Below, one piece after another: positions 2,461 to 9,113 of a stretch of DNA of 9,303 nucleotides. The stretch covers positions 1-9,303 of the forward strand of contig CANQKJ010000071.1 of NCBI GenBank assembly GCA_947624465.1, read 5' to 3'. A program made the translations under genes and the position numbers. Position 1 is the first letter of the stretch; each line of letters starts with the position of its first letter. Source of the DNA: an uncultured Oscillospiraceae bacterium. Its GTDB lineage: Bacteria > Bacillota > Clostridia > Oscillospirales > Oscillospiraceae. Under the pieces are notes generated by a model. The model made no database searches. It saw nothing but the letters and a program-made list of their open reading frames with translations, and was not told the origin of the DNA.

Positions 2461-2811
2461 ATGATCAAGCGTACCTATCAGGAGCTCCAGCCCTACTTTC
2501 CCCCCGGACATTTCGGCGTGACCTGCAAGCGCTATCACGGCAAGGACGAGACCGGCGCCACCAAGTTCTGGATCGGCGTGTCCGAGTTCGAGCCGGGCGG
2601 CGGCGCCGACTGGGCCTATGAGGACAACCCGCTGGAGAAGGTCTACTACGTCCTGGAGGGCGAGATGACCGTCACCGACAAGGACGGCAACGTCTACGTC
2701 ATCCACGCCAACGAGTCCATCTCCTTCCCGCCCAACGAGGGCCGCGGCCTGAAGAACGAGTCCGGCAAGCCCGCCAAGATGCTGGTCATCATCAACTATC
2801 CTGACGCCTGA
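2461..2811 (+). CDS. Small single-domain cupin protein lacking canonical metal ligands
   Basis: This 116-residue protein is the first gene of the catabolic operon. The cupin fold is shown by the EFEPGGG turn (42-48), the KVYYVLEGEMTV strand pair (60-71), and SFPPNEG (88-94) leading to N99, which fit cupin motifs 1 and 2. The usual metal ligands are missing: the HxH positions hold Y53 and D55, the glutamate position holds K60 (E59 is adjacent) and the motif 2 histidine position holds R95. The only histidines are H17, H26 and H82, outside the motifs. It may therefore be a metal-free ligand-binding protein or isomerase-like helper. AAAGGA lies nine bases before ATG 2461; longer upstream extensions have no such site. 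It is followed 38 bases later by the SDR gene. Its function is unknown; a role with ring substrates such as phloroglucinol is only suggested by context. Confidence 0.85.
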   Translation: MIKRTYQELQPYFPPGHFGVTCKRYHGKDETGATKFWIGVSEFEPGGGADWAYEDNPLEKVYYVLEGEMTVTDKDGNVYVIHANESISFPPNEGRGLKNESGKPAKMLVIINYPDA

Positions 2812-2849
2812 ATCCACCGCCCATCAAAATTATAAAGGAGGAATTTCCC

Positions 2850-3644
2850 ATGGTTCCCGTGGAAAAGAGTTTTGTTCAGAATATGTTCTCCGTTGAGGGC
2901 AAGGTCGCCCTGGTCACCGGCGCCACCGGCGCTCTGGGCTGCGTGCTGGCCAAGGCCTACGGCTACGCCGGCGCCAAGGTCTTCATGACCGGCCGGAACG
3001 ACAAGAAGCTGAAGGCCCTGGAGGACGAGTTCAAGGCCGAGGGCATCGACTGCGGCTACTTCGTGGCCGACCCCGCCAAGGAAGAGGACGTGGACGCCCT
3101 CATCAAGGCCTGCGTGGCCAAGTACGGCGAGATCAACATCCTGGCCGTGGCCCACGGCTTCAACAAGCCCCAGAACGTGCTGGAGCAGTCCGTGGCCGAC
3201 TGGCAGTACATCATGGACGCCGACTGCAAGAGCGTCTACATCGTCACCAAGTATGTGGCCCACCAGATGGTGGCCCAGGGCAAGGGCGGCAAGATGGTGG
3301 TCGTCACCTCCCAGCGCTCCAAGCGCGGCATGGCGGGCTACACCGGCTACTGCACCTCCAAGGGCGGCGCCGACCTGATGGTCTCCTGCCTGGCCTGCGA
3401 CCTGACCGCCAAGTACGGCATCAACGTCAACTCCATCTGCCCCACCGTGTTCCGCTCCGACCTGACCGAGTGGATGTTCGACCCCGAGTCCGCCGTGTAC
3501 AAGAACTTCCTGAACCGGGAGCCCATCGGCCGTCTGGGCGAGCCCGCCGACTTCGTGGGCTACGCGCTATTCCTGTCCTCCGCCGCCTCCGACTTCATCA
3601 CCGGCAGCAACGCCGACTGCTCCGGCGGCTATCTGGTGGTGTGA
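2850..3644 (+). CDS. SDR-family oxidoreductase, probable phloroglucinol reductase (PGR)
   Basis: The 264-residue length is typical of a classical short-chain dehydrogenase/reductase. The Rossmann motif TGATGALG (23-30) binds the nucleotide, and TGRN (47-50) at the end of the second strand is compatible with NADPH. S154, Y167 and K171 form the catalytic S-YxxxK set. Two conserved positions are unusual: the NNAG motif reads VAHG (100-103), and the tetrad asparagine is replaced by D125. In the anaerobic phloroglucinol pathway an NADPH-dependent SDR reduces phloroglucinol to dihydrophloroglucinol in the cytoplasm. The family, plus a cyclase, a hydroxyacid dehydrogenase and a BKACE enzyme directly downstream, supports that role. 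AAAGGAGG precedes ATG 2850, and the next gene begins 16 bases after the stop. SDRs are versatile, so without the context only 'SDR oxidoreductase' would be justified. Confidence 0.9.
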   Translation: MVPVEKSFVQNMFSVEGKVALVTGATGALGCVLAKAYGYAGAKVFMTGRNDKKLKALEDEFKAEGIDCGYFVADPAKEEDVDALIKACVAKYGEINILAVAHGFNKPQNVLEQSVADWQYIMDADCKSVYIVTKYVAHQMVAQGKGGKMVVVTSQRSKRGMAGYTGYCTSKGGADLMVSCLACDLTAKYGINVNSICPTVFRSDLTEWMFDPESAVYKNFLNREPIGRLGEPADFVGYALFLSSAASDFITGSNADCSGGYLVV

Positions 3645-3660
3645 TTAGGAGGATCCCTTC

Positions 3661-6831: not shown

Positions 6832-6864
6832 CCGTTTCACCCTGACCCGGAAAGGGGGCTCCTC

Positions 6865-7821
6865 ATGTCCGCCGCCGCGCAGCAGTCCGTCTCCCTGGCC
6901 ATCCAGCTGATCCTCATGGTGGGAGCCGGCATCCTGGCCGTCCGCCTGAAGATCGTCTCCGCCGACTTCGACAAGCCGCTGACCTCCTTCCTGATGAAGC
7001 TGTGCCTGCCCTGCATGATCGTCCGTTCCATGCTGGGGGACTTCTCCTGGGAGGAGCTTATCAACTGCGGCCGGCTGGTGGTCCTGGCGCTGATCCTGTG
7101 GGCGGTCACCTTCGCCGTGGGCCAGGGGCTGTACCTGGCCATGGGGAAGACCACCTCCGCCCGGCAGATGCGGTTCAGCTGTATGTATACCAACTTCACC
7201 TTCGTGGGCATCCCGGTGATGGAGGCCCTCTACGGCGACCAGGGCGTGTTCTACTTCGTGGTGTTCCTGGTGCCCTACCGGATGATCTATTACAGCTCCG
7301 CCGAGCCCTTCCTCTCCCCGCCGGGGGTGGAGCGCCGGAAAAAGACCCTGGCGGAGCAGATCAAGGGCTGGTTCTCCGCGCCGGTCATCGCCGTGTTCAT
7401 CGGCCTGATTCTGTACGTGACCCAGCTTCCCCTGCCCGTGCCGGTGTCCGGCGTCATCAACTCCCTGGGGGGCTGCGCTTCCCCGCTGGGGATGGTGCTG
7501 TGCGGTATCTCCCTCAGCCGGTACGACTTCAAAAAGCTGCTGAAGGTGAAGTATTTCCTCATCCCCCTGGTGCGCAACCTGGCCCTGCCGGCCCTGACCC
7601 TGGGGCTTTGCCTGCTGACCCGGCTGGATGCGGAGCTGGCCCACGTGGCTGTGATGTTCTCCGCCCTGCCGGTGCCCTCTCTGCTGGCGGCCTTCACCAT
7701 CCAGTACGACCCCGACCGGGAGAGCCAGTTCCAGGCGGCGGCCACGGTGCTGCTGTCCACCCTGTTCTCCGCGGTGACCATCCCCGTCTGGGCGGTGGCG
7801 CTGGCCCATCTGATCCCGTGA
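6865..7821 (+). CDS. AEC-family (auxin efflux carrier-like) membrane permease
   Basis: This is a 318-residue hydrophobic protein with about ten transmembrane helices in the two-repeat layout of the AEC family. The first helix spans about residues 9-27. The family motif TNFTFVGIPV (109-118) lies in the first half and SPLGMVLCGISLS (206-218) opens the second half, with a charged cytoplasmic loop (155-165, rich in R and K) between them. Characterised bacterial members carry malate, malonate or other organic acids, and plant relatives move auxin, an aromatic acid. In this cluster it could take up an aromatic substrate or export or exchange acid products; direction and substrate are inferred only from context. 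AAAGGGGG lies six bases before ATG 6865. It follows the long hairpin and probably depends on the upstream promoter, as no separate promoter was seen. Confidence 0.9.
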   Translation: MSAAAQQSVSLAIQLILMVGAGILAVRLKIVSADFDKPLTSFLMKLCLPCMIVRSMLGDFSWEELINCGRLVVLALILWAVTFAVGQGLYLAMGKTTSARQMRFSCMYTNFTFVGIPVMEALYGDQGVFYFVVFLVPYRMIYYSSAEPFLSPPGVERRKKTLAEQIKGWFSAPVIAVFIGLILYVTQLPLPVPVSGVINSLGGCASPLGMVLCGISLSRYDFKKLLKVKYFLIPLVRNLALPALTLGLCLLTRLDAELAHVAVMFSALPVPSLLAAFTIQYDPDRESQFQAAATVLLSTLFSAVTIPVWAVALAHLIP

Positions 7822-7886
7822 CCTGACCCTGAAAATTCGGACGCCTGTTCCTTTACATAGACAATCTGAACAACGAGGTGCTTTTC

Positions 7887-9113
7887 ATGAACAACTCCAC
7901 CCAAAAGCTGTCCATCCGCTGGCTCTATCTGGTCATCGGCACGGCCGCCATGCTCTTCGCCGGCATCATCTACGCCTGGTCCATCCTCCGCTCCCCCCTG
8001 GAGGCCGAGTTCGGCTGGGCCGCCAACAACATGGCCCTGAACTTCACCCTGACCATGTGCTTCTTCTGCATCGGCGCCTTTTTGGCCGGCATCCTGAGCA
8101 AGCGCCTGGGCGTGGCCGTGTCCGTCATCGCGGCCGGCCTCGTCGCCGCCGCCGGCCTGGTGCTGACCTCCACCCTGTCCGGCTCCAGCGTGGTGCTGCT
8201 GTACCTGTTCTACGGCATCATGGCGGGCACCGGCATCGGCTTTGCCTACAACGTCATCCTCTCCACCGTCAGCGCCTGGTTCCCCGACAAGAAGGGCCTC
8301 TGCTCCGGCGTGCTGCTCATGGGCTTCGGCGCCTCCGCCCTGGTGCTGGGCAATCTGGCCGGCTCCTTCATCCGCAATGCCGACATCGGCTGGCGGTTCG
8401 CCTTCCGCTTTTTGGGCATCTCCCTGGGGGTGGTGCTGGTGGTCGCCGGCCTCATCCTCCGCAAGCCCCCCGAGGGCACCCAGTTCCCCCAGCCCAAGGC
8501 CAAGGCCGCGGCCGGCGGCGAGAGCTTTGAGCCCCGGGACTTCACCACCCTGGAGATGATCCGTCGGCCCTCCTTCTGGATGGCCTTTGTGTGCATCGTG
8601 TTCCTGGCCGCCGTGGGCAACTCGGTCATCAGCTTCGCCAGCCAGCTGTCCCAGTCCGTGGGGGCCACGCTGGAGCTGGCCACCGTCCTGGTGGGCGTGC
8701 TGTCGGTGTGCAACGGCCTGGGCCGCATCCTCACCGGCGCGTTTTTCGACTCCCTGGGCCGCCGGATGACCATGCTGGCCGCCAATATCCTCACCATCGC
8801 CGCGGCGGGCATCACCCTGGTGGCCGTGCTGGTCCACTCCCTGCCGCTGTGTATCGTGGGCCTGTGCCTCACCGGATTGTCCTACGGCTCCTGCCCCACC
8901 GTCACCTCCGCGTTCACCTCCGCCTTCTACGGCACCAAGTACTTCCCCACCAACTTCTCCATCATGAACTTCAACCTGATGGGCGCCTCCTTCATGGCCA
9001 CCGCCTCCAGCGCCCTGCTCACCTCCTCCGGCGGGTATATCGCCCCCTTCATCCTGCTGCTGTGCCTGTCCGTGGCGGCCCTGGTGCTGAACCTGCTCAT
9101 CCGCAGGCCCTGA
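7887..9113 (+). CDS. MFS transporter of the OxlT-like (oxalate/formate antiporter) family
   Basis: This 408-residue permease has twelve predicted transmembrane helices split by a hydrophilic central loop (about 192-225). The first half carries GTGIGFAYN and AWFPDKKGLCSGVLLMGFG (114-148), typical of the OxlT/monocarboxylate branch. The second half carries the MFS signature GLGRILTGAFFDSLGRR (277-293). OxlT exchanges oxalate for formate, and relatives move small carboxylates. Exchange of a carboxylate product such as acetate or butyrate, or uptake of a phenolic, would suit this cluster but is not proven. ATG 7887 is chosen because GAGGTG (7875-7880) sits six bases upstream; the in-frame GTG at 7878 lies inside that site. 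The gap from the AEC gene is 65 bases without a clear promoter, and no strong terminator follows until 9248. Confidence 0.9.
   Translation: MNNSTQKLSIRWLYLVIGTAAMLFAGIIYAWSILRSPLEAEFGWAANNMALNFTLTMCFFCIGAFLAGILSKRLGVAVSVIAAGLVAAAGLVLTSTLSGSSVVLLYLFYGIMAGTGIGFAYNVILSTVSAWFPDKKGLCSGVLLMGFGASALVLGNLAGSFIRNADIGWRFAFRFLGISLGVVLVVAGLILRKPPEGTQFPQPKAKAAAGGESFEPRDFTTLEMIRRPSFWMAFVCIVFLAAVGNSVISFASQLSQSVGATLELATVLVGVLSVCNGLGRILTGAFFDSLGRRMTMLAANILTIAAAGITLVAVLVHSLPLCIVGLCLTGLSYGSCPTVTSAFTSAFYGTKYFPTNFSIMNFNLMGASFMATASSALLTSSGGYIAPFILLLCLSVAALVLNLLIRRP

What the first reader, a model, noticed from the sequence alone, without database searches (positions are those of the whole stretch)
2461..9113. Apparent complete phloroglucinol-degradation operon with its own permeases
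Four adjacent enzyme genes belong to exactly the families of the anaerobic phloroglucinol route: SDR (PGR), cyclase-family hydrolase (DPGC), 3HCDH-like dehydrogenase (HOHDH) and BKACE (TAL). Each keeps its catalytic residues, and two permeases follow. Known: this set converts phloroglucinol to acetoacetate and acetoacetyl-CoA in clostridia. Inferred: it acts here, likely on phloroglucinol released from dietary flavonoids. The cupin and zinc-ribbon genes are additions I cannot place in the known pathway.
Basis: partly seen in the sequence, partly recalled or inferred. Interest (0 to 1): 0.75.

Follow-up and report, generated by a model that had tools for sequence, protein, structure and literature searches.

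The report
Phloroglucinol operon with overlooked cupin
This bacterium, likely a gut dweller, carries a gene cluster matching the known clostridial one for breaking down the plant phenol phloroglucinol, so it is predicted to feed on that compound, and a small cupin gene in it recurs beside these enzymes across three bacterial phyla and likely belongs to the pathway although the main text of the paper that described the pathway does not mention it.

Summary
The SDR is a close relative of solved SDR 5g4k (recalled as a phloroglucinol reductase; 509 bits, next solved SDR 123). The other three enzymes carry the residues by which the 2023 Clostridium scatologenes paper told them from their cousins (DPGC Trp20/Tyr22; TfD without Lys56/Asn221; TAL Trp for Glu14). 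So: a new member of a known kind. 'From dietary flavonoids' is weaker: no phloretin hydrolase was found in this genome (78% complete) or two close relatives, while E. ramulus and Flavonifractor have it; scavenging fits better.
The cupin occurs in 9 of 391 class genomes, the same 9 that hold DPGC, within 4 kb in all; 8 of 8 plasmid records with a DPGC homologue hold it within about 4 kb. It lacks the canonical metal ligands; I predict a dihydrophloroglucinol tautomerase (about 0.3). Against universality, 13 of 54 full-context clusters lack it, and 22 of 30 listed cupin plasmid records lack DPGC. A zinc-ribbon gene follows TAL in 35 of 64 loci. One mycobacterial cluster cupin passes NCBI's Rv1717-type 'beta-galactosidase' cut-off.

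The parts
2461..2811 (+). Cupin_2 protein, 116 aa, without the canonical HxH metal motif; predicted fifth component of the phloroglucinol pathway
   Evidence: PF07883; 47 of 51 cluster cupins directly upstream of PGR on the same strand; same 9 of 391 class genomes as DPGC; model pLDDT 90.8; motif check
2850..3644 (+). Phloroglucinol reductase (PGR), SDR family
   Evidence: 509 bits to 5g4k/5g4l over residues 1-263, next solved SDR 123 bits; that 5g4k is the BAA-442 PGR is recalled
3661..4587 (+). (S)-3-hydroxy-5-oxohexanoate dehydrogenase (TfD/HOHDH), 3HCDH family
   Evidence: Pfam; catalytic Ser/His/Asn kept, CoA-binding Lys56 and Asn221 replaced by Val56 and Arg226
4624..5637 (+). Dihydrophloroglucinol cyclohydrolase (DPGC), cyclase family
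   Evidence: PF04199; Trp20 and Tyr22 as in CsDPGC; H49, H53, D55, H59 invariant in an alignment of 16
5718..6566 (+). Triacetate acetoacetate-lyase (TAL), BKACE family
   Evidence: PF05853 356 bits; Trp18 at the place of KCE Glu14; the only BKACE found in this 78%-complete genome
6575..6766 (+). 63-aa zinc-ribbon protein starting MSWG, tied to TAL; possible zinc or assembly helper of TAL (inferred)
   Evidence: adjacent to TAL in 35 of the 35 loci that hold it, in 35 of 64 TAL loci and 0 of 16 loci without TAL, some of these cut by contig ends; C12, C15, C36, C39 invariant in 23; model pLDDT 84.5
6865..7821 (+). AEC-family permease (PF03547), possible uptake or export of phloroglucinol or products
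   Evidence: homologues within 5 kb of DPGC in 8 of 80 loci
7887..9113 (+). MFS permease of the oxalate/formate-lactate group
   Evidence: NF049980 268 bits, below its cut-off of 320; close homologue (95-97%) only in L002 and L003

Best explanation
Window 2461-6766 is a cluster whose four enzyme genes match the characterised clostridial phloroglucinol enzymes, three of them down to the published distinguishing residues, so it is predicted to turn phloroglucinol into acetoacetate and acetoacetyl-CoA, and its cupin gene, found beside these enzymes in three phyla, likely encodes an unrecognised fifth pathway protein. Shown here: gene content, order, residues and co-occurrence. Taken from the C. 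scatologenes paper: PGR reduces phloroglucinol with NADPH to dihydrophloroglucinol (DPG), DPGC opens the ring hydrolytically, TfD oxidises (S)-3-hydroxy-5-oxohexanoate to triacetate, and TAL with acetyl-CoA gives acetoacetate and acetoacetyl-CoA. Inferred: the cupin, lacking the canonical metal ligands, would bind the enolate form of DPG (or of another 1,3-dicarbonyl of the route) and speed keto-enol exchange so that DPGC can hydrolyse it. Inferred: the zinc ribbon would serve TAL, which the paper proposed to be a zinc enzyme. Inferred: the cell would scavenge free phloroglucinol made by others. The confidence below covers the pathway and the cupin's membership in it; tautomerase activity alone I put at about 0.3.
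For: PGR: 509 bits to 5g4k against 123 for the next SDR. Residue tests from PMC10470551: DPGC W20/Y22 in the window and in 79 of 79 relatives aligned at these places (of 80 loci); TAL Trp18 in 67 of 67 of those loci with a TAL hit; TfD position 56 never Lys where aligned and position 226 Arg in 64 of 64 aligned (66 with a hit) (HBD alignment). Cupin: 9 of 391 class genomes at E<=1e-12, the same 9 that hold DPGC at >=63% identity, in 6 families, same strand and within 4 kb in 9 of 9; in the cluster in 41 of 54 full-context loci and 51 of 80 in all; in two more genomes whose DPGC contig was cut, a close cupin sits by a piece of PGR on another contig (L128, L129); within about 4 kb of DPGC in 8 of 8 plasmid records with a DPGC homologue of >=34% identity, e.g. 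DPGC-cupin-PGR-TfD-TAL in Rhizorhabdus. Where the pathway is split over two contigs, the cupin stays with PGR-DPGC and TAL-TfD lies elsewhere. No HxH at the metal motif in any of 72 distinct aligned cupins; structural neighbours include RemF and KdgF. CsDPGC is the slowest of the three enzymes with a turnover in the text I read (1.04/s v 22-25 for PGR and 78-395 for TfD, the last measured in reverse). Precedents: plant hexenal isomerase is a cupin with a proposed keto-enol mechanism; KdgF cupins speed a spontaneous ring opening.
Against: No activity was or could be tested. The C. scatologenes enzymes turn phloroglucinol into acetoacetate in vitro without any cupin, so it is not indispensable there. 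13 of 54 full-context clusters have no cupin; the 12 genomes behind them have only a 27-42% cupin elsewhere, which proves little. Cupin relatives also occur without DPGC: 22 of the 30 listed plasmid records with the cupin have no such DPGC, and the 2 of these I opened hold BKACE-alcohol dehydrogenase-cupin. Distance matrices do not single out PGR or DPGC as partner: r with the cupin 0.14 PGR, 0.33 TfD, 0.36 DPGC, 0.50 TAL in 38 loci. In Pseudomonadota/Mycobacterium TAL has Ile, not Trp, in 5 of 5, so those clusters may have another substrate. In two of the nine class genomes the best PGR is only 37-39% identical. Lys60 of the cupin is Lys in 75, Met in 8, Ser in 8, Thr in 1 of 92 aligned rows. 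A relative named beta-D-galactosidase was reported active on galactosides.
Confidence: 0.8

Rival explanations
1. The cupin is a binding or regulatory protein of the pathway (ligand sensor, assembly factor or enzyme stabiliser), not an enzyme.
For: No canonical metal ligands; pathway runs without it in vitro; some clusters lack it.
Against: Invariant polar residues H17, R24, H26, E30 and motif-2 R95 in 28 close relatives look like a ligand or active site; no other domain found in its 116 aa.
Confidence: 0.35
2. The cupin acts on another 1,3-dicarbonyl step (triacetate or its lactone) rather than on DPG, i.e. it partners TAL/BKACE.
For: Cupin distances follow TAL best (r 0.50); two rhizobial-type cupins sit by BKACE without DPGC.
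Against: In split genomes the cupin stays with PGR-DPGC and away from TAL.
Confidence: 0.25
3. The cluster degrades another phenol or a lysine-fermentation intermediate rather than phloroglucinol.
For: BKACE scores best against the lysine-fermentation KCE model among NCBIfam models (299.5 bits).
Against: That score is below the model's cut-off of 382; KCE Glu14 is Trp; PGR and DPGC match the phloroglucinol enzymes.
Confidence: 0.05
4. The cupin is a quercetinase-like dioxygenase or a glycosidase acting on flavonoids or their glycosides.
For: Source names such as 'quercetin dioxygenase-like cupin family protein'; the Rv1717 beta-galactosidase report.
Against: Cupin dioxygenases need metal ligands and oxygen (recalled); canonical ligands are absent. 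It occurs in a host without a detected phloretin hydrolase; the window cupin scores 72 bits against the galactosidase model, cut-off 175.
Confidence: 0.04

Closest known systems
Anaerobic phloroglucinol gene cluster of Clostridium scatologenes (PGR, DPGC, TfD, TAL; Zhou et al. 2023, PMC10470551)
   Same: Same four enzyme families; same distinguishing residues in DPGC, TfD and TAL
   Different: Carries cupin and zinc-ribbon genes ('cupin' occurs 0 times in the paper's main text) and an AEC permease; by the accession numbers in the text the C. scatologenes enzyme genes are not all next to each other. Whether C. scatologenes has the cupin was not seen
Eubacterium ramulus cluster (NZ_JRFU, L064)
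   Same: PGR-TfD-DPGC-TAL-zinc ribbon in the same order, 58-85% identical
   Different: Its cupin is divergent (32-34%) and on the opposite strand; phosphate butyryltransferase and butyrate kinase follow; host has phloretin hydrolase
Rv1717-type cupin, 'beta-D-galactosidase' (NF050094; PMC7873859)
   Same: Best curated family for the window cupin and for all 10 other cupins scanned, over nearly full length
   Different: Window cupin 72 bits, cut-off 175; of the 11 only the M. riyadhense cluster cupin passes (204.9)
KdgF and plant hexenal isomerase (cupins of ring-opening or keto-enol chemistry)
   Different: No sequence family membership shown; plant enzyme not among the structure hits listed

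Membership tests
Anaerobic phloroglucinol degradation cluster (PGR-DPGC-TfD-TAL) | All four enzyme families co-located | tested here: met
Anaerobic phloroglucinol degradation cluster | SDR closest to characterised PGR | tested here: met
   509 v 123 bits; that 5g4k is PGR is recalled (the paper cites a PGR structure from strain BAA-442)
Anaerobic phloroglucinol degradation cluster | PGR NADPH motif TR(S/N) | tested here: inconclusive
   Window reads T47-G-R-N, identical to 5g4k but with a Gly between T and R
Anaerobic phloroglucinol degradation cluster | DPGC with Trp20 and Tyr22 in place of the isatin hydrolase residues | tested here: met
   W20, Y22
Anaerobic phloroglucinol degradation cluster | TfD keeps catalytic Ser/His/Asn, lacks CoA-binding Lys56 and Asn221 | tested here: met
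   Read off the alignment to solved 3-hydroxybutyryl-CoA dehydrogenase 4kug; V56, R226
Anaerobic phloroglucinol degradation cluster | TAL with Trp in place of KCE Glu14 | tested here: met
   W18
Anaerobic phloroglucinol degradation cluster | Activity and induction by phloroglucinol | not testable with these tools
   Bench work needed
Flavonoid degrader making its own phloroglucinol | Phloretin hydrolase in the genome | tested here: inconclusive
   PF18089 0 in G000 (78% complete) and in 2 close relatives; present in 5 of 5 E. ramulus/Flavonifractor genomes
Lysine-fermentation KCE (NF052387) | Score above curated cut-off; Glu14 | tested here: not met
   299.5 of 382 bits; Trp at the Glu14 place
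Canonical metal-binding cupin | HxH...E and His of the two cupin motifs (motifs recalled) | tested here: not met
   Window has Y53/D55 (or E54/N56), K60 and R95 there; no HxH at that place in 72 distinct aligned cupins
Rv1717-type beta-D-galactosidase (NF050094) | Score above curated cut-off | tested here: not met
   72 of 175 bits for the window cupin

The most novel reading that the evidence does not exclude
The cupin is a metal-free 1,3-dicarbonyl (dihydrophloroglucinol) tautomerase, the missing fifth enzyme of phloroglucinol ring opening in Bacillota, Pseudomonadota and Actinomycetota, and the Rv1717-type cupins now named beta-galactosidases are its relatives and belong to phenol catabolism.
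Probability: 0.22. Interest if true: 0.75.

Novelty: new member of a known kind. Interest (0 to 1): 0.5.

Why it matters
Phloroglucinol is the point where anaerobic breakdown of flavonoids and tannins joins fermentation to short-chain fatty acids. A reliable reading of this cluster tells which bacteria can do that last step, including ones that seem to depend on others for the phenol. If the cupin is a real fifth component, the published four-enzyme reconstitution and the genome screen built on it are incomplete, the slow DPGC step (about 1/s in vitro) has a candidate accelerator, and a family now annotated as a glycosidase would need a second look.

Tried and rejected
Lysine fermentation as the pathway: rejected by score and by the Trp/Glu residue. 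Quercetinase or glycosidase cupin: see rivals. Cupin as strict partner of PGR: not supported by distance correlation, nor in G112/G188, where TfD follows the cupin and PGR lies 5-6 kb from it. Cupin as universal: rejected, 13 of 54 full-context clusters lack it. One search covered 39 genomes (40 of the 80 loci: the 29 without a cluster cupin, the 2 E. ramulus, 9 with one) and 36 matched at E<=1e-5; of the 28 genomes behind the 29 loci, 3 have a close cupin (78-87%), 22 only a 27-43% one, 3 none. Class search for the zinc ribbon: 8 of 391 genomes at E<=1e-4, but only G000 and G161 (both with DPGC) below E 1e-11; the rest are parts of frames of 818-961 aa. Zinc-ribbon fold search: no match at E<=0.001. 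Pfam names for the zinc ribbon: none above cut-off for the window's. Rfam: nothing. Promoter-like sites: 2, 1.4 expected, so nothing is claimed. The cupin fold search lists dozens of cupins; the fold shows no function. Paper searches for cupin with phloroglucinol: 'phloroglucinol degradation'+'cupin' 0 papers; 'phloroglucinol'+'cupin'+'gut bacteria' 2 papers, whose cupin passages concern quercetinase-type dioxygenases; a looser search gave 211 papers, of which I saw the 15 listed. No paper search was made for the zinc ribbon. The library is open-licence papers only, and the supplements and figures of PMC10470551 were not seen, so the cupin may be drawn in its figures. C. scatologenes itself was not among the 80 loci kept of 240. 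Only two HxH were found in cluster or relative cupins: in L029 far upstream of the domain in an over-long frame, and in L136 at window positions 24-26, not at the metal motif.
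Full report
WHAT IS THERE. The window is 9303 bases of contig C71 of an unnamed 2.09-Mb assembly, 78% complete. On the + strand lie eight genes: cupin 2461-2811, SDR 2850-3644, 3HCDH 3661-4587, cyclase 4624-5637, BKACE 5718-6566, zinc ribbon 6575-6766, AEC permease 6865-7821, MFS permease 7887-9113. On the - strand to the left are a family-2 glycosyltransferase (834-2057) and a prfB fragment (2-508), with no evident link to the pathway. The closest records are two Oscillospiraceae assemblies named 'Lapin' (presumably rabbit gut), L002 and L003, about 95% identical over the cluster.

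IS IT THE PHLOROGLUCINOL PATHWAY? The C. scatologenes paper (PMC10470551; [quoted passage not shown] I tested these. PGR: 509 bits to solved SDR 5g4k over 263 of 264 residues, next solved SDR 123 bits; I recall 5g4k as the PGR of Clostridium sp. ATCC BAA-442, whose structure the paper cites. DPGC: Trp20 and Tyr22, the paper's marks, are at exactly these positions here, and in 79 of 79 relatives aligned there out of 80. TfD: against solved 3-hydroxybutyryl-CoA dehydrogenase the catalytic Ser, His and Asn are kept, while CoA-binding Lys56 and Asn221 are Val56 and Arg226; position 226 is Arg in 64 of 64 aligned relatives, 66 having a hit. TAL: Trp18 stands where the lysine-fermentation enzyme has Glu14, in 67 of 67 of the 80 loci that have a TAL hit. 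One mark is not literal: the paper's TR(S/N) reads TGRN here, as in 5g4k. I conclude that the four enzymes are predicted to do what the C. scatologenes ones do.

WHERE DOES THE PHLOROGLUCINOL COME FROM? Phloretin hydrolase (PF18089) was searched in eight genomes: found in 2 of 2 E. ramulus and 3 of 3 Flavonifractor genomes, not in the window's genome nor in those of L002 and L003. So this lineage likely takes up phloroglucinol that other microbes release; a missing contig could still hide the gene, and the gallate/pyrogallol route was not tested. The permeases fit uptake but are variable: AEC homologues within 5 kb of DPGC in 8 of 80 loci (a ninth hit, 23% identical, lies 6 kb away); the close MFS in 2 of 80, five others at 22-46%. 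In E. ramulus the cluster is followed by phosphate butyryltransferase and butyrate kinase, in line with fermentation to butyrate.

THE CUPIN RECURS IN THE CLUSTER. A scan of genome contigs with a DPGC alignment gave 240 confirmed stretches, of which the best 80 were kept. With a profile iterated on the fetched loci, 51 of 80 loci hold a relative of the window cupin within 8 kb of DPGC; among the 54 loci with at least 1.5 kb on both sides of the enzymes, 41 do and 13 do not. In 47 of 51 it is directly upstream of PGR on the same strand; two more lie 150-167 bp off, and in the two E. ramulus it is divergently transcribed. A genome-wide search of the 28 genomes behind the 29 loci without it found a close cupin in 3 (78-87%; in two beside a piece of PGR on another contig), only a 27-43% cupin in 22, none in 3; the 12 genomes of the 13 full-context loci are all among the 22. 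Independent of that sampling, 391 genomes drawn evenly from the class were searched twice: the cupin (E<=1e-12) is in 9, a DPGC of 63-100% identity in 9, and they are the same 9 (6 families, 7 genera; 5 other DPGC hits are cyclases of 30-32% identity, without the cupin). In all 9 the two genes are on one strand within 4 kb; all 9 have a PGR-like SDR, though only 37-39% identical in two. A random draw of the same 9 would have probability 2e-18, not corrected for kinship. The cut-off matters: E. ramulus, with a distant cupin at 4e-12, would fall just outside.

OTHER PHYLA. In the plasmid collection 8 records hold a DPGC homologue of 34-64% identity over 86% or more of the query: six alphaproteobacterial, one mycobacterial, one clostridial (Acetoanaerobium). 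All 8 hold the cupin within about 4 kb, in Rhizobium ACO-34A on the other strand, and its DPGC lacks Tyr22. Annotated orders: cyclase-cupin-SDR-3HCDH-DUF849 in Rhizorhabdus wittichii RW1; cyclase-cupin-SDR-3HCDH-MFS-BKACE in Novosphingobium; the same core with an extra hydrolase gene and transporters in Pacificitalea and Aminobacter; SDR, cyclase, cupin, BKACE in Mycobacterium riyadhense, with an unannotated 3HCDH-like frame between SDR and cyclase. Sinorhizobium BG8 has no annotation there; Acetoanaerobium was not opened. Against exclusivity: 22 of the 30 listed cupin-bearing plasmid records lack such a DPGC; in the two I opened, the cupin lies by an alcohol dehydrogenase and BKACE. Also, TAL in these phyla has Ile for Trp in 5 of 5, and PGR has Gly for Arg49, so their substrate or cofactor is less sure.

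THE ZINC RIBBON. A protein of 62-71 aa, usually 62-64, with (S/T)WG after its first residue, follows TAL in 35 of 64 TAL loci, always adjacent, and is in 0 of 16 loci without TAL. Among 391 class genomes matches below E 1e-11 exist only in two, both with DPGC, so 7 of the 9 DPGC genomes there lack a clear one. Its cysteines are invariant in 23 members; for the window's protein no Pfam model passes its cut-off and no solved fold matches at E<=0.001. The paper proposed TAL to be zinc-dependent, so a helper of TAL is the simplest guess.

A LABEL TO REVIEW. NCBIfam NF050094, 'beta-D-galactosidase' after Rv1717, is the best curated model for the window cupin (72 bits, cut-off 175) and for all 10 others scanned; the M. 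riyadhense cupin between DPGC and BKACE passes it (204.9), the other nine do not. The Rv1717 paper (abstract and passages seen) reports galactosidase activity of urea-solubilised, refolded protein; the terms Rv1714, Rv1715, Rv1716 and operon occur 0 times in its main text. I recall those neighbours as an SDR, a 3HCDH and a further enzyme; I did not check them.

VERDICT. A well-supported new member of a known pathway, with two recurring accessory genes. For the cupin I found no mention in this role in the paper searches I made; for the zinc ribbon only the text of PMC10470551 was searched, for 'zinc'.

Noticed in passing
   Followed up: partly
L123 (Mycobacterium riyadhense plasmid) 8798-9148: Cupin between DPGC and BKACE genes passes NCBI's cut-off for the Rv1717-type beta-D-galactosidase, so the family name and the gene context disagree.
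   Followed up: partly
L185, L186 (Rhizobium bangladeshense, Bosea vaviloviae plasmids): Relatives of the cupin in BKACE / zinc alcohol dehydrogenase clusters without DPGC, perhaps another 1,3-dicarbonyl pathway.
   Followed up: no
L095 (G014:C19): A same-genus genome holds a second, distant DPGC-like (37-39%) and TfD-like (45%) pair on another contig than its main DPGC.
   Followed up: no
L064 12521-18201 (Eubacterium ramulus): Phosphate butyryltransferase, butyrate kinase and a two-gene pair that I take, from memory, for an Nfn-type ferredoxin:NADP oxidoreductase follow the cluster, a possible NADPH supply for PGR.
   Followed up: partly
window 9153-9303: End of the contig has no match in L002 or L003 and carries a strong terminator-like hairpin at 9246-9281.
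   Followed up: no
G475 (genome of L066): Ten BKACE matches in one 2.3-Mb assembly, several in pieces.
   Followed up: no
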